Shown here piece after piece: positions 23,223 to 48,100 of a stretch of 64,000 nucleotides of DNA. Both the position numbers and the translations under genes were made by a program. Each line of letters opens with the position of its first letter. Positions within the stretch are counted from its first letter, which is position 1. The stretch covers positions 248,001 to 312,000 of the forward strand of contig CAJNOJ010000092.1 in the NCBI GenBank assembly GCA_905250025.1. The letters run 5' to 3'. This DNA comes from Adineta ricciae. Taxonomy: Eukaryota; Rotifera; Eurotatoria; Adinetida; Adinetidae. The notes below the pieces were generated by a model. It was not told the origin of the DNA and did not search any database. It saw only the letters and a list, made by a program, of their open reading frames with translations.

Positions 23223-25260
23223 ATGGGACAAATTCTTAATAAGATCATCACGTCCTCCGATGATAATTTAGAAACATTCTCTCTTATTTGGCTCGATGCA
23301 TTTGTGAATAAAACAGATGATAATCAGCATACTCAAGATGAATTACGAGCTACGATTCATCAATTGAAAACATTCGAAGATTCCGAACGGTGTATGAAAC
23401 ATATCCTATCAACAGGTAACGGTGATCGAATTGTTTTGATCGTCAGCGGTTCATTAGGACGAACGATTGTTCCTCGTATTCACAATCTCGAGCAAGTTCT
23501 TTCCATCTATGTCTACTGTCAAGATCAAACTGCCAATGAACAATGGTCTAGTCGATATCCGAAAGTGATTGATCCACAAGAAAATCTCCTCAGAACATGT
23601 GCATCAAGTGTTTCTCTTCTAGGTCAAAGCTGTCGTTACCGACACGAAAGAATTGATTGTTCGAATCCAAATCGATCAAGAAAAACGCCAACAAAGTCGA
23701 ATCTATGAGCCCTTGCCTATCAGTATCTTCGACACAAAAATTGTCCATGCGAAATTAACGACTAATCTTCAAGGACATCTCGTACATAGCCAATTACTAA
23801 TCAATTGTCTTCTACAAATGCGAACTGAGACCACTGATAAGAATGAATTGATTTCGATTAGCAAGAAAATTTATCGAAAGAACCGTGCAGAATTGATGAT
23901 CATCAATGAATTCGAACAGAAATATTCATCTGATACAGCAATATCATGGTATACGAGAGATACGTTTCTGTCTCGGCTATTGAACAAAGCACTTCGAACG
24001 CAGAATATCGATGTTTTGTTTCTTTTTCAATTTTTTATCGTGGATATCCGACAGCAATTAGAAAAGCTTCGTTTATCCGTGCCCATTCGCGCTTATCGTA
24101 GTCAGTTGATGTCGAACGAAGAGTTGAAAAAACTGAAACATTCCACTGGACACTTTGTCTCCATCAATTCATTTTTTTCCGCCACCTTAGACCGAAATCG
24201 TGCTATAGCTTGCATAGAGAACACTGAGAACTTCGTACCGATCCTATTCGAAATCGATGCCGAGCCTAATCTAAGCACGGATAAGCCGTTTGCAAATATT
24301 AAGCATCAAACATTGAATCGTGATGAAGAAATTCTCTTCATGTTAGGCTCAATTTTCCAAATCATCGACATTTTCACTTATCAGCGAAGCATTTGGATAG
24401 TCAAATTGAAACTTTGTTCGGATAGTAGTCGACAGTTGGATATGATTGAAGACGAAAATCAATTACTCTCATTCGGACATGTCCTAATGACGATGGGTAA
24501 GATCGAAGAGGCGGAAATCTACTATCGACGCCTGTTAGAAGATTTCGAATCCAACAAACACGCCGATCTGGCACGTTGTTACGAAGCACTTGGCAATGTA
24601 GCTGATGAAAAATGTGATTATGACATGGCATTGCATTTCCACGACAAATCGCTGCGAATTAATCTATCTGAACCAAGCAAACGTTCGCTTGACATCGCAT
24701 CGAATTATAACAACATCGGAGAAATTCAACGGAAGAAAGGATATTTTAAAAAAGCTATTGAGAATTACGAAAAAGCATTAGATGTTTTAGGTGAATATCC
24801 ATTGGGCAAAGGTTTAGTGAAACAAGCGATATGTTTCAATAATATTGGTATTGCTTGTCAAGAACAACATGCTTACAAAGAAGCACTGAGTTATTATCGG
24901 AAAGCATACGAAATCCGCCGGAGAAACTTTCCACACGATGAAACATCTCTCGGCATGTCGTACAATAACATCGGCAATGCGTATTATCTTTTAAAACTTT
25001 ATACCGATGCGATTTATTACTATCAAGAAGCTTTACAATTGTACAAGAAAACACTTCCACCGCACCATCCAAAATACGCATCGACTTGTAATAATATCGG
25101 GGCGATTTATGATGATCAAGGCAAATATAACGAGGCATTGGGCTTCTATACTGATGCCGCGAAAATCTATCGAAATATCTATTCATCCACACATCCAAAT
25201 GTAATCAAAATCGAAGAAAATATTCAACGAGTTTTGACAAAAATTAAGCAAAAGAATTGA
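23223..25260 (+). CDS. ADP-ribosyltransferase-fold protein with C-terminal TPR array
   Basis: Two exons, 23223-23564 and 23623-25260, joined by a 58-nt phase-0 GT-AG intron; what looks like a frameshift at 23650 is this intron. 659 residues. The first ~180 are a domain I cannot name (VLIVSGSLG, IYVYCQ). The middle fits the arginine ADP-ribosyltransferase (R-S-E) fold: a VPIRAYR arginine, a SINSFFSAT serine motif, and RDEEILFMLG carrying the final acidic EXE-like motif. From ~residue 420 there are at least six kinesin-light-chain-like TPRs (YNNIGEIQRKKG, FNNIGIACQEQ, YNNIGNAYYLL, CNNIGAIYDDQ). Such ART-TPR fusions are numerous in bdelloids. Target unknown; enzymatic activity is plausible, not certain. 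No signal peptide. Confidence 0.85.
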
Positions 25261-25645
25261 TTCTCAGTTTTTTTTCCTATAAATAAATTGTGTCTAGTAA
25301 AAGTTTCAACATCTTATCGTGCATTGATGAGTTGAGCTAATCAAGGATAATGCACTGAATCATCGTTAGCTATTTGAATAGAAAGCAAACCTTGCTTGAG
25401 TATATTGGCGAAGGTTTGAAAAATAAGTTTTCGACCTTGTAGTTTATTGTTAAAATGTGTAAACATGAGTATGTTTTTACCGTATTATCAACATACGATT
25501 GGCTGTTGAATGCACTAGTACACTTGTGAAACGAGAGGTAGAAAAACATGGAAGATTATTCACAATTGATGAACTAAAAATAATGAATTTCAAGACATTT
25601 TTAACAGCAGAGAAAAGAAACATTCATGAACAATTATCTTCAGAT
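25261..25645. other. Convergent intergenic region
   Basis: Holds the AATAAA of the ART-TPR gene (near 25281). A plus-strand open stretch from about 25499 runs antisense into the NPF gene; it has no clear start or family. Confidence 0.5.
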
Positions 25646-27000
25646 TTAAAGTGTAATATCAAAACGAGCAAATTTCGATTTTCCTTTGTTGGAAGTCGTT
25701 TCTTTCTTTTCGGTGTCCGAGTGATCGCTGTTAGAATTCGATGGTCGACTTTCATTGACTATAACTTCATCGGCGAAACGAACTGTGCGTTCGTTTTCTC
25801 GACGTTGTGCTCGGATTTCGTCGGGCGATGGATAATGATATCGTCCATACGTTGCAGCAAATGGATTATCAGGACTCATGTTTAGCGACGTTTTGTCCAA
25901 TGGAAGTGATCCGTTTGCTTTCCGTGGCGAAGATTGTGAAGTTATCGTTGGTGCTGGTCGAGGTGATGGTAGTGATTGTTGCTGTGAAGGTGGAGGTAGT
26001 AGCGGTTGCTGTTGTTGACGAGGAGAACTTGGTGGTGGAACATAGGAAAGCTCATTGTGATTATAGTAATCCGCTGGTGGTCTTTGAACATGAATAGGTC
26101 GATAGGACAGTGGCGCAGGATTATTTCGCGTCCAATCAGCAATCGATGTGGTGACTGTACTGAGATTTAATTCATTTCCAATTTCACCAGCTGAATACTG
26201 ACGTATTAATGATGGTCGATAACTATAACTACTAAATGAATTCGAGTGCGCTAAACCATTCGATGAAAAGGATGAGTCGTTTATAGGTGAGAGTTCACTG
26301 AGACGTTTTTGAAAAGTCGATTGAGATGTCGTCGTTATCGTTGGTGGTGACGGTTTATAACGCTCATACGTAACTGCAAAAGGATTTTCATCCGACATAT
26401 ACAATGATTTACTGTCTGTAGAACGTGCTGATGAATTCTGTGTTGTGATTCGTTTCGATGGATCGACTTGCGTAGGATAACGGTAGTTTCCATAGACAGC
26501 GAAGAATGGATTTTCATCAGAGAGATTCAATGATTTATTTACAGCACCATCTGTTTTTCGTGGAGAAGTTATAGAAGTTATTGTACGTGTTGCACTGAAT
26601 TGTTGTTCGTAAGGACGAGCTGGATCAACAAATGGATTTTCACTGGACATCATATTTGTTTTTTCAATAGCACCGGTACTAGTTGATCCTGTACTATTCG
26701 TTCGTCTATGATTGCTGACGATAGAGAACCGTCCAGTATTTGGCGGAACATAACTAAACACGAGACGAATAAAAAATTATTTCCTTTTTTTTCTTTCTAT
26801 TGATTGACAACTAAATGAGCATATATTTACTTATTTGTTGCTGAACCGACTAATGATTGTTGGCCAGTAGTCGATCGATCGGTGTAGAGGGCAAAACGGG
26901 TTTGAGGTAACGATAGATCGAAGTTGTTTCTAGAACTCATTGGATAATCATAACCGTGATGTCGTGTTTTGAGAATGGGCGGTGGTTGGTTTGCATACAT
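25646..27000 (-). CDS. Disordered protein with four NPF repeats, EH-domain ligand candidate
   Basis: Two exons, 27000..26831 and 26753..25646, joined over a 77-nt intron; ~425 residues. Low complexity, rich in Ser, Pro, Asn, Gln and Tyr, with a poly-Gln/Pro part (RQQQQPLLPPPSQQQ). A degenerate unit recurs four times: SSENPFVDP, LSDENPFFAVYGNY, MSDENPFAVTYERY and MSPDNPFAATYGRY. Asn-Pro-Phe is the classical ligand of EH domains in endocytic adaptors; repeated NPF with a conserved trailing Tyr suggests multivalent binding. An SSPRK/SPRKT element recurs between units. A basic, Ser-rich tail ends the protein. No globular domain seen; the endocytic role is inferred from NPF alone. Confidence 0.7.
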
Positions 27001-36100: not shown

Positions 36101-39100
36101 TGAGAGAATTAGTACGCGGCGAATTAACTGATAATGCACGTGAAACATTGAAAGCATTAATTGTTATTGAAGTACACGCACGTGATGTGGTCATCAATCT
36201 CATCGAGGAAAAAGTTATGAATGTCAATGATTTTGAATGGATCTCACAAGTAAGATACAAGGAAACGAATTTCACTACAATTCTACTTCGATTTGATTAG
36301 TTACGTTATTATTGGAATGAAGATCATCTGTACATTCGTGCTGTCAACGCAGAATTTCGTTATGGTTATGAGTATTTAGGTAATACACCACGTTTGGTTA
36401 TTACACCGTTGACTGACCGGTGTTATCTGACATTAACTGGCGCTTTACATTTGAAATTCGGTGGTGCACCAGGTAAAATCAAAACTTCCGTAGAATTGAC
36501 TTGATAACCAAGTTATTCTTTAGCTGGACCCGCTGGTACAGGAAAAACGGAAACAACTAAAGATTTAGCTAAAGCGATGGCTGTTCAATGTGTCGTGTTC
36601 AACTGTTCTGATCAATTAGATTTTATGGTAATGATTATTCAAACTTAGTTGAATACTTATCTATTATTCTAGGCTATGGCCAAGTTTTTCTGCGGTTTAG
36701 CAAGGTGAGTACAGTTATGCATTGTATATCCACAACGAATTTTTATTCGTATATCATCACAACATGTAAAGTGCCGGAGCATTTGCGTGTCTTGATGAGT
36801 TTAACCGTATAGATATTGAAGTCTTGAGTGTTGTTGCTAACCAAGTTTCAACAATTCTTCGTGCATGTCAGTTACGGGTATAAACACATACAATACAAAA
36901 ACGTAGATTTCTTCTCTATTCTTGTGATTCATTTGGGATATAATCGAGTGATTCTGATGGGCTCTCTTGTGATTCAAATCTCTTAGCTCAGATTCAAGTA
37001 TTTCTGCTCTTTCTTTCTTCCTTCAGTGCCGGTGCATGGGCTTGCTTCGATGAATTTAATCGAATCGATATTGAAGTACTTTCGGTAGTTGCTCAACAGA
37101 TTCAAGTGATTAATCAGGCTTTAATGCAAAAGGTAATTTGATAATCGGTGTGGTGAACTGATTTGTTTTCGTATGATAATAACCGATTTTAATATATACA
37201 TCTTATCAGTTGTGGTTGTTGGTGTTGTTTGGATGAGTTTAATGTTAGTATACTAAATGAAACGGAATATCGATGATGATTTATAATCTATGATAGCGCA
37301 TCAACATTGAAGTTCTATCAGTAGTGGCAAACCAAGTGCTAACGATTCAACTAACTCTTCGAACTCGTGTATAGTGATTACGCTACTAACATAATTGATT
37401 TCTTTTTGCTGATTATTAGTTTTGAAAGATTTATTTGAATTAGTGTTCTAAACATGTTTTTGTTCGTCTAGGCTGAAAGATTCATGTTTGAAGGCAAAGA
37501 AATCGTTCTCAAATCCTCATGTGCCGTTTTCATTACAATGAATCCAGGTTATGCTGGACGGTATGCTAGACATTCTCATAGTTAATCTTAAACAATGATT
37601 TATTTTAGTACTGAATTGCCCGATAATCTTAAAGCTCTATTTCGACCAGTCGGTAAGTGACGGAGTAGTGCGTCTCTACGAAATTCAACTAATTATCATT
37701 TAGCTATGATGGTTCCGGACTATGGTCTTATTGCTGAGAATTCACTATTTTCGTTTGGCTTTTCCGATGCTAAACCTTTAGCGAAAAAGATTGTTCAAAC
37801 ATTCAAGTTATCATCAGAACAATTGAGTTCACAAGATCACTACGATTTCGGTATGCGTGCCGTCAAATCTGTCATTTCGGCAGCTGGCAATCTCAAACGA
37901 CAATATCCAAACATGAATGAAGTTAGTCATCGATCGATTTCTTTCGTATGATAATCTCCCTATACCTCCTTAGGATTTAATTTGTCTGCGAGCCATTCGT
38001 GACGTTAACATTCCGAAATTTCTCCAAGATGATTTGAAACTATTTACTGGTATCGTTTCTGATCTTTTCCCGAAGATTAAGTAAGACTTACTGGGTTATT
38101 AAGTAATAGCAATTGAAAGAATGCATGTATTTGTAGAGAGGAACCTATCGACTATAAAATACTGGAAGAAGGTTTACGCCATGCATGTCGTCAACTTAAT
38201 CTCAAAGATGTTGACGGATTTTTACTCAAATGTATCCAGTTATTCGAAACAACCATTGTTCGACACGGTAAGTTCAAGCGCAATGATCATAGAAGTTACT
38301 TAGTACATTCGGCTTGTCTAGGTCTGATGCTTGTCGGTCCAACAGGCTCTGGCAAAACGAAGAGTTATGAATCTTTACAAATAGCTATGACACATATGAA
38401 AGGAAAAATCAATCCGGCCGGTTCACCATTCAAACCCGTACACACCTATGTTCTCAATCCAAAATCCATTACTATGGGTCAATTGTACGGTGCATTCGAT
38501 GATTTGACTCATGAATGGTAAATTTTCTTGATAAACTTTGATTTGCAACATATGAGTGATGTTTAGGACCGATGGTATACTTTCTACTTTGATGCGACAA
38601 GGCGTAGCTGCCGAAAATGATGATAAACGGTGGTATCTATTTGATGGTAAATTCGAAGTTTTGTTTGTAGAGAGAGATCAAGAATATTCTACGAATTTTA
38701 GGTCCTGTCGATGCTGTATGGATTGAAAATATGAACACAGTACTAGACGACAACAAAAAACTATGTTTGAGTAGTGGTGAAATTATCAAAATGACTGAAG
38801 TATGATTTTTTTTTGAAAGAAATGGTGAATCTCCTAATATACAAAACAAACTACTTCTTTTCAGGCGATGACAATGATGTTTGAAGTTGCTGATCTGTCT
38901 CAAGCATCACCTGCTACTGTATCTCGTTGTGGTATGGTCTACTTAGAACCTTCAATTCTCGGTCTACAACCATTCATCGAATGTTGGATGAAAAAGTTAC
39001 CCGATGCAATCTTTAAATACTACGAACAAATCAATCAACTATTCACTAATTTTCTCGAAGTAAGTCATCAAATTCATCTTCACTTCAGCAAATCAATTAC

Positions 39101-42100: not shown

Positions 42101-45100
42101 ACGTTAGAGGCCGATGCAAAAGTTGTCCAAGGTCTAGTCAAGTTATGTCAAGAGATACATCAATCTGCAGCTTTGATGACAACAAAATATCGTGAAGAAA
42201 TGAGTCGACATAATTATGTTACACCGACATCTTATCTTGAACTGCTGAATATCTTTTCGAAAATCTTCGGCAAGAAAAAAGATGAACTAGTGTTAGCTAA
42301 ACGACGTACGAAAACAGGTTTGGACAAATTGTTGTCAACAGAGAAAGACGTGGCGAAATTGCGTGTTGAATTGAATGAAATGCTACCGTTACTTGATCAA
42401 GCTGTCCAAGAAACGAACGAAACGATGGCGAAAATCGCTGAAGATACATCAAGCACGGAAGAAATCAAAACTAAAGTAGCCAGCGAAGAAGAAGAAGTAC
42501 AGAAGAAAGTCAAAGAAACTCGTGCTATCGCCAGCGAAGCATCAGAACGGCTTGCAGAAGCCATGCCTGCACTTGAAGCTGCATTACAGAGTCTTGAAGT
42601 TCTATCGAAAAATGATATCAATGAAGTACGTGCTCTACAACGACCGCCGCAAGGTGTCAAATTAACAATGGAAGCCGTGTGTATTCTAAAACAAGTTGAA
42701 CCACTGAAGGTGCCTGTACCAAATAAGCCAGGAAAGAAAGAAGATGATTATTGGGAACCTGGTCGTGGTTTATTAGCTGATGCCGGTAAATTTCTTCAAT
42801 CACTGCGAGAATTCGATAAAGAAAACATTCCGGAAATTGTCATACAGAAATTACAAAAACATATTGACAGTCCTGATTTTGATCCGATTAAGATTGAGAA
42901 AACGTCGAAAGCGTGCAAATCGTTATGCATGTGGTGTCGAGCAATGTACGCATTCTATATGATTAACAAAGAAGTCGCACCACGTAAAGAAGCATTAGCA
43001 AATGCTGAAGCCGAATTAGCTATTGTCAAAGAAGTATTGGCAACAAAGAAACGTGAATTGAAAAAATTGGAAGAAGGTTTAAGAACATTACAAGTCAAAT
43101 ATGAAGATGCTGTACGAAAGAAAACAGAATATGAAACTAAAGTCGACGAATGTAATCAACGAATTGCGCGTGCAGAACGAGTAAGTTTGCCTTTTCTTTA
43201 TATGGGTATGAATATGTAGACGTTTCTGATATTGATTAGTTAACAACTGGTTTGGGCGATGAAAAAATTCGTTGGCAGGAAAATGTTGCGATGTTGGACA
43301 ATTCTCTAGGAAATGTCATTGGCGATGTGCTCGTTTGTTCGGGATTTATTGCATATCTTGGTCCATTTACTGTAAATATTTAAATGAAAATCATTTTTCT
43401 CTTCTATTCAAAGCCCATTCCCTCATTCTAGGCTGAATACCGTGAAAATATGGTCCGAGAATGGATTACGAAGTTAACTGCATACAATGTACCACATTCC
43501 GACAATCCAGAATTAGTTCGAGTCTTGGGTGATGCTGTCAAGATTCGTAATTGGCAATTAGCCGGCTTACCAAAGGATAACTTATCCGTACAAAACGGTG
43601 TTATCGTTCAATATTCAAATCGTTGGCCGTTATTCATCGATCCACAAGGACAAGCAAATAAATGGATTAAAAATATGGTATAAGTGAAACTATGAATGAG
43701 AGATGAAATTCATTGTTGTTGTTATATTGAAATTTTAGGAAAAAAATACAGGTCTCGATGTGATGAAACTGTCGGATCGTGATTATTTACGAACATTAGA
43801 AAATTCGATTCGATTCGGTAAACCATGTCTATTAGAAAACGTAGGAACAGATATAGATCCTGGTATGTCTTACGCAGTTTCGTAAAGTTTGAGAGAAACT
43901 TATATTTTCTTTTTAGCTCTCGAACCCGTTCTACTGCGTCAAGTAAATATTTTAAACAACACTATTATAGTCATTACTCTTTTTCATTTAAACAGACTTT
44001 TCGTCAATCGGGCAGCACCGTAATCAAGCTGGGTGATGCTACTATACCGTACCATGATGATTTTCGTTTTTATATTACCACTAAACTGCCGAATCCACAA
44101 TATACACCAGAAATATCGGTTAAAGTAACACTGGTGAACTTCACGTTATCCCCAAGGTAAAAATAAAGATCATTTTCTCTAGAAGTATATCATTTGTTTG
44201 TTTGTTTGTTTTTAGTGGTTTGGAAGATCAAATGTTAGCACGTGTTGTTGCTGAAGAACGTCCTGATTTGGAAGAAATGAAAAATACACTGATTGTATCC
44301 AATGCCACTATGCGCAACGAACTGAAAGCGTTAGAAGATACGATTTTGGAAAAATTAAGTACAAGTGATAATCCAGTCGATGATATCGAATTAATCACAG
44401 CTCTCGAAGCATCAAAAGCTAAATCCACAGAAATCAAAGTTTGTGGTCATTGTTTGAGTAGCACAAAGATTTATTTCGCTCGTTTTGTTTAGACGAAAAT
44501 GCAAGCGGCCGAACAGACAGAAAAGGATATTGATATAACCCGCGCTGAATATGTTCCTGTCGCCGTGAATACACAAATTTTGTTCTTCTGTGTTTCCGAT
44601 TTGGCAAATGTTGATCCTATGTATCAGTACTCATTAGAATGGTTCACAAACATCTTCTTAACCAGCATTCAAAGTGCACCACGAGCAGGTAGAATGTTTT
44701 TCTCTTTCTATTGCTATTTCTCAACAAAAATGTTTGCTTATTTCTAGATAATTTGGAAAATCGCATCAAGAACATCAACGATTATTTCACGTTTAGCCTT
44801 TATTGCAATGTCTGTCGAAGTTTATTTGAAAAACATAAATTATTATTTGCATTCTTATTAACTGTACGAATATTAATGAATCAAAAGAAAATCCAAATGG
44901 TAAGTTCGATTCTGTTTCCTTTCATCAAGACAAGAGCGAACAAACAACAGAGATTATTTGTCTTTCCATATGTAAATTGAACTTGACATGATGATTATGC
45001 TAGTCTAATTCGATGCATTTTGTAATAAGAACTGTTCTGTATCATCTCAACGGTTGACTATTCAATAATGACTGACAATTTCGACTTATAAATCGTTATT

Positions 45101-48100
45101 TGTTATCAAGTCATTTTCCGAGATCTGTTTATATTCTTGTTTTCCTCGTCGTCGGCTTGATTCTTCTGTGCGTAAGTGATATGCGGAAATACATTGATTG
45201 GTTTGAGATACGGTCGATTGTAATGTTGCTGACGACATAGCGGAGGGTAATGTTCGATGTGGCGACGAGATGAGACCACAGAATAATTTCTCGTATCGAA
45301 AGGTTTTCTTTAACGTTGACAAAAATTTTTCGTTAAATGCACAATAGAAAAAGAAATTAATCGAATAGTTTAATAACAGCATAATGTTCGTGATTAACTT
45401 TTGTATACGAAAACCAACGTAGTAGTAATTTGGATATTTCTTTTTGGTTAAGGACCGTACGAGACCAGGGTACGAGATAATGGTAAATGTGTTACATATG
45501 AGAAAGACGATCACAACAGCCACGAGAGTTTTTGTTAAGCGATGCTCGTCGCGAAGACGTTTTTGTGCTGCAGCACTTACACCAGCGGTTGTTGAATTGA
45601 GATTCCGTTGTTGTCGGGCGATCAATTCTGCTAACGTGTAACGATTTGATGATTGTACACGTGTGATTAAACTTAAGTTCAAACAAAGTAATATGGCGAA
45701 TGGAATTATTTGATTGATACCTAACATAGTAGAGTAATAATAGTTTTTCAATGGCAGGAAACTTTCTTCTGTGTGACCGACTACGCAAAAGCATTGACCC
45801 ATATGAGAAGTATTTGTTGATGAGTATCGGATTTGAAATGGATGCGTGACGCAATTCGATGAGTTGAATTTCGTTTCGGTATCAATCTTCTTCTCAACTG
45901 TTTCAGTTAAAAATCTCGGAAGATTTAACAGGCTGCATAGAACCATGATAATAGCAATAACGCGACGTGCATAACTTGGTTTACAGAAACTCTGTGTACG
46001 TAATGGATAGGTTGTGAATAAATAACGTTCGACAGTCAATGCAACGGTAATCATGATACTAACTTGACCAAAGTAATTTGCCATGGGTACGAATAGTCGC
46101 GCTTCGAGACGCGTCAAAGTAAAGAAGATGTCTTCATGTCTAATATAATCACCGCGCACGACTGAAACAGGTGAAAAGGAAATTAATGTTAACATATCAG
46201 CTAATGCTAAGCCTGTGAGATAAGTATAGGGAGATTCTTTGAGACGACGTTGAACAAGAACACATAGATTAAGTATGTTACATACGACACCGAATATACA
46301 AATTGTTAACATCACATAACGATAACCAGCAACTTCGATATCATGTAGTGCATTCGAACGAATCGATCCATTGACGTTTAATAAACAAGGAGCTTTATAC
46401 ATGATGACAATATTCCTGTTTGTTTATCTAAAAACAATAACTATGAATGTTCTATTTAGAACGAATATCGATTCTTCTTGGCTGGTGGTTCAACGCGACC
46501 TGTTGATGTACCCAATCCCGCTCCTAAGTGGATAACGGATCGTATTTGGTCAGAAATACTTACACTTGAATCAATAAACGCATTCAAAGGTTTTGCACAA
46601 AATTTCCAAACTTATATCAAAGATTACAAGCAAATATTCGACAGCAGTGAGCCTGAAAAGTAAGTACAAGCATATATATATATATATAAAGATACTTTTA
46701 TTCGTTCGTACGGATGATCAGTCAAATCATTTATCAATCGAAAGAGTGCAGATTCGAAGAGAAAAACTAATAACTCAGAAAACAGCTTCGAGCGAACTAC
46801 TTAGTCAACGAGTAGCCTTCTTCATCTGTTTGTTAAATTTATGAGAAAAATAAGTAAAATTCGAATAAAAAGGAGATCTAGGCAAAAGATATGCGCTACT
46901 CAATTCAGTGGGGGTTAGTCTACATTATCTAATTTGTAATGGAAGATGCATTAAGAACAGTACGAATCTCCTACCTCATCTTGCCTATTGACGAAGAAGA
47001 AAAGAAATCGGTTGGTTGTCAGTATATGTAATGTTGAACACATCAACTACATTTAGCCTACAGGGCATATTTGTTTTCTTAAGAAAAAAAAAACCATTGC
47101 CTGTTAATGTTCTAATTCTTTAGCGTTAGATGAAAAAATCTGCGAGATTAGACAAGAAATTGTCAATATGCAAATCAATTGACTTTTTCAAAGGTAATCT
47201 CGAGATGTGTATGTGTAGGAGGAAGAAACAATATATTTGAAAACGAATAGAATAGATCGTACTATGCAGAATCACAAAATTCTTTTCCTTTATTTCTTCG
47301 TCGACTCAATCAATAGACAATGCTCGCAGCGATATAGTTCATTGAGTCAATGGATAAACCAGGAATGCAATTGTGTGGATGGTTAACATTATCGTGCGTT
47401 GTCTATCGTGATAATATTTCTCATATACTTGTTCTCATTGACAATTGACAAGAAGAAGTCTAATACAATAATTATGCCAATGATGAACTATGTGAAGAGA
47501 ATATATATATGTCTAGATATCTTTATTGAATATTACAATGAGCAAGAAGAGCGCGACTAGAGAAATCGGCAAGTGAATCAGTAATGCTTATTCTAAATGC
47601 AAAAGATGAAGGAACTTTATTACCTTTCAAGATCGATGTTGGTGTTAACATGCCGATACGATATCGAATACGACTTTTTTTACTCAGATCTACTCGACGA
47701 TATATCATGAGAATAAGATATCGTATGTTGTTGCTTATGCACATAAATGCTAACGATAGAGGAAAGAGAGACACAGAGGGAGAGAACTGTTCCTAGTATT
47801 CTCAGACATCTATATTTGACGTGCTTTATAGTCGTATTTGACGATGATCATGAGATCATTTTTATATAATATAGCAAAAAAAAGAATGGAATAGTAACGA
47901 GAAGACAGACATAGGAGCGGATATTCTTCCTCGGGGAGCAGCTATTTACTTTTTCGATTGCTACTTATGCCTATCCCAAATGGGCATATGATTTGACATG
48001 AACTTATTAGTTTTTCTTCTATTTATTGATGTATCTTATCATAGAGCTCATCTACCTCAAGAATGGGCTAATCGTTTGGATGACTTTCAAAAAATCATGT

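What the first reader, a model, noticed from the sequence alone, without database searches (positions are those of the whole stretch)
36705..37471. Three tandem, phase-locked alternative exons for the AAA1 Walker B segment of DNAH1
Seen: between the exon ending 36704 and the one starting 37472 lie three cassettes, each 106 nt of coding sequence (36772-36877; 37027-37132; 37210-37243 + 37297-37368), each encoding 36 residues with the DEFNRI Walker B core. 106 is not a multiple of 3: joining A to B, B to C or A to C meets a TGA within nine codons, and skipping all three shifts the frame, so exactly one must be included. Differences in the shared core (IEVLSVVA) are mostly synonymous, pointing to selection on protein. 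Known: AAA1 is the main ATPase of dynein and Walker B drives hydrolysis. Inference: the motor's catalytic site is tuned by mutually exclusive splicing (F/W, L/F changes and three different following helices), perhaps giving cilia of different beat properties. I know of no such arrangement at this site.
Basis: partly seen in the sequence, partly recalled or inferred. Interest (0 to 1): 0.95.

Follow-up and report, generated by a model that had tools for sequence, protein, structure and literature searches.

The report
Swappable motor exons in rotifer dynein
A gene for a motor protein of beating cilia in a microscopic animal carries three alternative versions of the exon that encodes part of its ATP-burning site, and all three look like protein-coding exons kept by selection, so the animal can probably build differently tuned motors from one gene.

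Summary
The three cassettes are real. A (36772-36877), B (37027-37132) and C (37210-37243 + 37297-37368) are each 106 nt, in the same phase, open, with GT/AG borders, and homologous. They encode the AAA1 Walker B segment of DNAH1; B is the ordinary DNAH1 exon. The genome holds a second DNAH1 copy (contig C15, 94.5% identical) with all three intact. Differences between the copies are all synonymous (A 5/5, B 1/1, C 6/6; A+C about 1.6e-6 under a neutral model), so A and C are constrained as protein, not dead duplicates. The two introns flanking A are more conserved than any of 41 other introns of the gene. An Adineta steineri gene model contains the second half of C; an annelid model contains two different Walker B cassettes.

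Splice-site scores suggest B is the default; A and C are weaker, presumably regulated. No transcript data could be examined. Mutually exclusive exons are known in myosin catalytic domains and a cytoplasmic dynein heavy chain, so this is a new variant of a known kind, at a striking site.

The parts
36673..36704 (+). exon upstream of the cluster ([10 protein letters not shown] + first two bases of the shared Ser codon)
36705..36771 (+). intron before A, 67 nt; 1 difference in 67 between the two gene copies, below all 41 introns outside the cluster; weak 3' splice site catgtaaag
36772..36877 (+). cassette A: (S)[35 protein letters not shown]
36878..37026 (+). A-B intron, 149 nt; 4 differences in 146 aligned sites (3 more are gaps), also below all 41; holds CTTGTGATTC twice, 45 nt apart, in both gene copies; strong pyrimidine tract before B
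37027..37132 (+). cassette B, the canonical DNAH1 exon: (S)[35 protein letters not shown]
37133..37209 (+). B-C intron, 77 nt; 4 differences
37210..37243 (+). cassette C, first half (C1, 34 nt): (S)[11 protein letters not shown]
37244..37296 (+). 53-nt intron inside cassette C, between DEFN and RI; 6 differences
37297..37368 (+). cassette C, second half (C2, 72 nt, in frame also directly after A or B): [24 protein letters not shown]
   Evidence: homolog in Adineta steineri model P0004
37369..37471 (+). intron after the cluster, 103 nt; strong acceptor
37472..37560 (+). exon downstream of the cluster ([29 protein letters not shown]...)
36524..36627 (+). exon with the AAA1 Walker A motif GPAGTGKT (borders from my own gene model)

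Best explanation
A cluster of three tandem alternative exons in the bdelloid DNAH1 gene, each able to supply the AAA1 Walker B strand and the segment after it. Shown: anatomy, phase, homology, two intact copies of the cluster, and protein-level purifying selection on A and C. Inferred: B, with the strongest splice sites, is the default; A and C have weak sites and would be chosen under splicing control; most double inclusions end in a stop, so essentially one cassette per working protein (mutually exclusive), with A+C2 or B+C2 as possible exceptions. Inferred further: every cassette keeps D-E-F-N-R-I, so all should hydrolyse ATP, but A and C change neighbours that DNAH1 elsewhere keeps (W5 to F in A; F8 to L and Q24 to N in both), and the last 12 residues differ in all three, which would alter the ATPase rate or its coupling in this inner-arm dynein.
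For: Anatomy. Intact second gene copy. All 12 differences between the copies in the cassettes are synonymous third-position changes; a random change would be synonymous with probability 0.27-0.30, P about 1.6e-6 for the 11 in A and C. The rest of the gene between 32.3 and 42.1 kb has 195 synonymous and 25 non-synonymous changes, so A and C behave like ordinary coding sequence (Fisher P 0.61). Introns outside the cluster differ at 9.4% (238 of 2526); the five cluster introns at 22 of 446 (binomial P 0.0003, optimistic because intron rates vary from 3.2 to 19.1%); the two flanking A, at 1 of 67 and 4 of 146, lie below all 41 others (noticed after the fact). Splice sites against 64 short introns of the gene model: B acceptor 84th and donor 36th percentile; A acceptor below all 64, A donor 6th; C1 acceptor 9th, C2 acceptor 5th, C2 donor below all. 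C2 homolog in the A. steineri model P0004. DEFNRI is invariant in 181 of 181 cassettes tabulated. The changes seen in A and C are found in other dyneins: F5 in this genome's own DNAH5/8-like exon [14 protein letters not shown]; L8 in 5 of 305 tabulated cassettes, three of which also have C4 (P0203, P0210, P0256).
Against: No transcript evidence was available. A's acceptor and C2's donor score below all 64 introns, which also fits poorly used exons. Six of 16 patterns are open, so exclusivity is not enforced by frame. No pairing between the cluster introns stands out (best z -1.2 of ten pairs, against simple letter shuffles), so no docking/selector mechanism is seen. Models from Rotaria (P0005) and Didymodactylos (P0188, partial) show a single B-like cassette. 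N24 of A and C was seen in none of 305 tabulated cassettes, and W5, changed in A, is unchanged in all 305 (EVLS-type cassettes only), which could mean weakened function.
Confidence: 0.74

Rival explanations
1. Functional alternative exons but not strictly mutually exclusive: C2 is also used alone as a 24-residue in-frame insertion after A or B, so that some proteins carry a doubled post-Walker-B segment.
For: B+C2 and A+C2 stay open. The A. steineri model P0004 is exactly B followed by a C2 homolog.
Against: C1 keeps DEFN, the W and the C of Walker B and shows one change between gene copies, synonymous, which a C2-only role would not preserve; but C1 is only 34 nt. Apart from the double cassette of P0003 and the identical repeats of P0001 and P0002, no other of the 302 fetched proteins has a second EVLS segment. 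The P0004 model may be an ab initio guess.
Confidence: 0.13
2. Dead or dying exon duplicates that happen to remain open; only B is used.
For: Weak splice sites of A and C; A changes W5 and both change F8 and Q24, nearly or fully fixed in the tabulated DNAH1-type cassettes; Rotaria and Didymodactylos models have one cassette.
Against: 11 of 11 differences between gene copies in A and C are synonymous (P about 1.6e-6); no stop or frameshift in either copy of A or C; the cassettes are near or at saturation at synonymous sites, yet the catalytic core is intact; introns flanking A are unusually conserved.
Confidence: 0.08
3. Regulated unproductive splicing: A and C serve mainly as poison exons whose joint inclusion with B triggers decay of the DNAH1 mRNA.
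For: A+B, B+C1 and A+C1 give early stops.
Against: A poison exon needs no conserved protein sequence, but A and C are conserved as protein, and each alone gives an open frame.
Confidence: 0.05

Closest known systems
Mutually exclusive exon clusters in muscle myosin heavy chain (Mhc clusters 2, 3 and others; PMC3912159, passages read)
   Same: Tandem alternative exons inside the ATPase core of a motor protein (P-loop, loop-1, switch-1), discussed as tuning its ATPase.
   Different: Myosin, not dynein; here the Walker B segment of AAA1 in an axonemal dynein.
[quoted passage not shown]
   Same: Dynein heavy chain; homologous exons of identical length with split codons at the borders.
   Different: Cytoplasmic dynein; one query exon and one candidate; its place is given only as the middle of the gene, so I cannot say whether it is AAA1. 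Here axonemal DNAH1, three cassettes, at the AAA1 catalytic site.
Two Walker B cassettes in the Paralvinella palmiformis DNAH1 gene model (P0003)
   Same: Same gene, same segment, two divergent cassettes; between them 23 residues that look like a translated pyrimidine tract (my inference, from protein only).
   Different: Annelid. The second cassette ([36 protein letters not shown]) lacks the N24 shared by A and C, so it may be an independent event. No DNA or transcript was seen.

Membership tests
Cluster of mutually exclusive exons (criteria of PMC3228551) | very similar exon length | tested here: met
   106 nt each; C only as the sum of two exons of 34 and 72 nt
Cluster of mutually exclusive exons (criteria of PMC3228551) | compatible splice sites and reading phase, no in-frame stop | tested here: met
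   splice sites of A and C are weak
Cluster of mutually exclusive exons (criteria of PMC3228551) | exons encode homologous sequence | tested here: met
   36-residue identities A-B 24, A-C 24, B-C 21; profile hits
Cluster of mutually exclusive exons (criteria of PMC3228551) | exactly one exon of the cluster in each transcript | not testable with these tools
   no RNA data; frame allows 6 of 16 patterns
Mutually exclusive exons by competing RNA structures (PMC6071210, passages read) | docking site in one intron complementary to selector sequences in others | tested here: inconclusive
   ten intron pairs against 200 letter shuffles each, best z -1.2; only two close copies, so no covariation test
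Mutually exclusive exons by steric hindrance | intron between exons too short to splice | tested here: not met
   A-B intron 149 nt and B-C intron 77 nt, while 54 of 59 introns of the gene model are 45-66 nt; branch points were not established
DNAH1 axonemal dynein heavy chain | best match DNAH1, with AAA1 P-loop and Walker B | tested here: met
   three DNAH1 chains best (8j07_g6, 9d2f_U, 9fqr_X1); 57.6% identity over 4302 aligned positions to a macaque DNAH1, P0069

The most novel reading that the evidence does not exclude
The AAA1 Walker B exon of DNAH1 is an old site of mutually exclusive splicing in Spiralia (rotifers, and an annelid), so that a single inner-arm dynein gene yields motors with different catalytic sites. 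The cassettes differ from one another as much as separate dynein classes do: B shares 23 of 35 residues with A and 20 with C, against 24 with the genome's DNAH6-like exon. A and C share N24, seen in none of 305 tabulated cassettes, and keep T28, whereas the B-type cassettes of Adineta, Rotaria and Didymodactylos all have V28; by parsimony the duplication predates those bdelloids.
Probability: 0.3. Interest if true: 0.82.

Novelty: new variant of a known kind. Interest (0 to 1): 0.66.

Why it matters
Animals diversify their ciliary motors mainly by keeping many heavy-chain genes (general knowledge). If these cassettes are used, one animal gets several versions of the main ATPase site of an axonemal dynein from one gene, as arthropods do with muscle myosin. 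It would offer natural, selected variants of a site that is nearly frozen in DNAH1 of other animals, at positions next to the catalytic residues that biochemists could test one by one, and a way to ask whether different cilia of one animal use differently tuned dyneins.

Tried and rejected
Other dynein genes in the same genome: reading the places listed (best candidates only, so lower bounds), the window and its C15 copy are the only places with two or more full-length Walker B exons within 1 kb, apart from C117:1207-1371 and 1401-1574. That pair is two near-identical copies with an N at the join, against a single copy on C25: an assembly artefact. The C71 and C14 pairs look like successive exons, judged by their query ranges only.

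Other duplicated exons in DNAH1: a protein-against-window search listed none beyond A and B; three further overlapping hit pairs appear to be alignments running on through introns and were not looked at one by one. That search did not list C, so other short duplicates could have been missed.

Several-fold hits P0001 (Exaiptasia) and P0002 (Acipenser) looked at first like tandem cassettes (note) but are identical copies 335 and 791 residues apart: probably assembly or model duplications, not counted.

Capture of A or C from another dynein gene: unlikely for A (DNAH1 best by over 10 bits); less clear for C (DNAH1 best by about 2 bits). Both queries included DNAH1 flanks.

Intron pairing: nothing notable. 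AlphaFold model of Ciona P0199 from 18 sequences: block pLDDT 28-51 over the cassette (mean 63.7 overall), not used. Scan of viral contigs: one stretch matched, no locus returned. Scan of bacterial genome contigs: 19 loci; the six translated show ordinary dynein cassettes. A paper on dynein phylogeny sought by a recalled DOI is not held. My first intron comparison counted gaps as differences in the cluster and included the cluster in the baseline; one search repeats it properly and is the one used. All ten paper searches are used.

Full report
What was checked first. The window belongs to a 130-Mb genome (G000, contig C92). A profile built from 148 distinct dynein cassettes finds A, B, C1 and C2, and nothing else with a positive score, in window 30001-52000 and in the 9.9-kb second copy. 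A search of the DNAH1 model against the window showed no other clearly duplicated exon, but it did not list C either, so short copies could be missed.

The gene. A simple gene finder of my own gave a long model in which B was chosen; its first part is another gene, and parts of the far end are unreliable. B with its flanks matches DNAH1 chains best among solved structures (8j07_g6, 111 bits). The protein is 90.7% identical to an Adineta steineri model and 86.4% to one from Rotaria magnacalcarata over the parts they cover, so the organism is a bdelloid rotifer, probably near Adineta; the species was not determined. That DNAH1 is a single-headed inner-arm dynein is recalled.

Frame logic. Of 16 inclusion patterns of A, B, C1 and C2, six are open: A, B, C1+C2, C1 alone, A+C2, B+C2. 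A+B, A+C1 and B+C1 stop at codon 55, the ninth codon of the second cassette; skipping all stops at codon 34; C2 alone stops at codon 20. The A. steineri model P0004 is B followed by a C2 homolog ([24 protein letters not shown], 20 of 24 residues as in the window). This shows that the second half of C exists in another species; it is not evidence of a transcript.

Selection. The genome has a second copy of the region on contig C15, 94.5% identical over 9.9 kb, with A, B and C intact. Between the copies A differs at 5 sites, B at 1, C at 6; all 12 are synonymous third-position changes, while read in the two other frames 23 of 24 would be non-synonymous. With the transition bias of the introns, a random change would be synonymous with probability 0.29 (A), 0.27 (B) and 0.30 (C); for A and C together P is about 1.6e-6. 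The rest of the DNAH1 coding region between 32.3 and 42.1 kb has 195 synonymous and 25 non-synonymous changes in 2165 codons. A and C are thus no less constrained than the rest of the gene (Fisher P 0.61). Between cassettes, residues 1-24 show dN 0.17 and dS 2.6 for A-B, and 0.21 and 2.1 for B-C; A-C has dN 0.28 with synonymous sites saturated. The last 12 residues are free or diversified (dN about 1 for A-B and B-C, 0.58 for A-C). With so few codons these values are rough.

What changes. Cassettes were tabulated from the best 120 listed hits of each search (120 of 3168, 120 of 183, 120 of 796; 302 distinct proteins). In 181 of the 182 proteins of the first two searches (P0004 left out, one cassette each), DEFNRI and most of the core are invariant. 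B agrees with the majority residue at all of the first 26 positions. A has F instead of the invariant W5; A and C have L instead of F8 (L in 1 of 181, from Brachionus) and N instead of Q24 (0 of 181). C also has Cys at positions 2 (3 of 181), 4 and 6 (0 of 181 each) and N15 (0 of 181). In 305 cassettes of the EVLS type from all 302 proteins, W5 is never changed and N24 never seen; L8 occurs in five, three of which also have Cys at position 4. Outside that type, F5 occurs in this genome's own DNAH5/8-like exon ([14 protein letters not shown]), so F5 is compatible with a dynein. No listed protein has a complete A or C cassette. The database is clustered at 90%, so isoforms that differ only in a cassette would be hidden.

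Age. V28 occurs in the B-type cassettes of Adineta, Rotaria and Didymodactylos (P0004, P0005, P0188) and in one metagenome protein of unknown origin (P0267), while A and C keep T28. By parsimony the A/C lineage split off before V28 arose, hence before those bdelloids separated; Rotaria and Didymodactylos would then have lost A and C or have them unannotated. This rests on one residue. A and C share N24, so they probably share an ancestor. The annelid Paralvinella has a model with two cassettes, [36 protein letters not shown] and [36 protein letters not shown], separated by 23 residues that look like a translated pyrimidine tract (my inference). Whether that is the same ancient event or convergence cannot be told.

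Splicing. Against 64 introns of 40-120 nt from the gene model, taken as constitutive, B has a strong acceptor (84th percentile) and a middling donor (36th); the upstream donor (56th) and downstream acceptor (91st) are good; A has an acceptor below all 64 and a donor at the 6th percentile; C1 acceptor 9th, C1 donor 19th, C2 acceptor 5th, C2 donor below all. The natural reading is that B is the default and A and C need help, which is expected of regulated exons but also of weak ones. Introns outside the cluster differ between the two gene copies at 238 of 2526 aligned sites (9.4%); the five cluster introns at 22 of 446 (binomial P 0.0003, optimistic because the rates of the 41 other introns run from 3.2 to 19.1%). 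The excess conservation lies in the two introns flanking A (1 of 67 and 4 of 146), both below all 41 others; the other three are unremarkable (looked at after the fact). CTTGTGATTC is present twice in the A-B intron in both copies, a possible regulatory element. Intron-intron pairing is unremarkable. The A-B and B-C introns are longer than the usual 45-66 nt, so steric exclusion is unlikely.

Known relatives. A paper on predicting mutually exclusive exons gives the cytoplasmic dynein heavy chain of Schistosoma as its first test case and states three criteria, length, splice sites with phase, and homology, all met here with C counted as one unit (PMC3228551: abstract, passages and section 9 read). 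Muscle myosin has such exons over the P-loop and switch-1 (PMC3912159, passages read). In humans 377 (60%) of the clusters contain exons with lengths not divisible by three (PMC5740500, passages read). Passages only were also read of PMC3583065, PMC7969005, PMC9741552, PMC6071210 and PMC2674883; none speaks of this site. None of the titles and abstract openings listed by the ten paper searches reports such exons at the AAA1 Walker B of an axonemal dynein; the library lacks most subscription journals.

Verdict. Real cassettes, constrained as protein, at the catalytic site of an axonemal dynein; use, strict mutual exclusion and function remain to be shown with RNA.

Noticed in passing
window 45086-46408, minus strand: An intronless 440-residue seven-transmembrane receptor gene (Pfam 7tm_1, 71 bits) lies in reverse orientation inside a 1.56-kb intron of DNAH1 (44900-46459).
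   Followed up: partly
window 44840-44980; protein P0004: The Adineta steineri DNAH1 model ends about where this long intron begins here, with a few unmatched residues; public bdelloid DNAH1 models may be truncated by annotation.
   Followed up: partly
window 46661-48045: A second long DNAH1 intron (about 1.4 kb, borders judged by eye) follows soon after, in a gene whose introns are mostly 45-66 nt; its content was not studied.
   Followed up: no
window 36921-36930 and 36966-36975: CTTGTGATTC twice in the intron between A and B, present twice in the second gene copy too; a candidate splicing element.
   Followed up: partly
L017 (G000:C117:1-3074): Two near-identical copies of a DNAH5/8-like Walker B exon with an N at the join; the other copy of the gene (L018) has one: assembly artefact.
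   Followed up: yes
L069-L073: Contigs filed under bacterial metagenome assemblies (Verrucomicrobiaceae, Bacilli) encode eukaryotic dynein heavy chains without introns in the matched stretch: apparent contamination.
   Followed up: partly
window 24109-25995: A gene with tetratricopeptide-like repeats (kinesin-light-chain-like by eye) lies upstream of DNAH1; my gene finder fused it to DNAH1.
   Followed up: no
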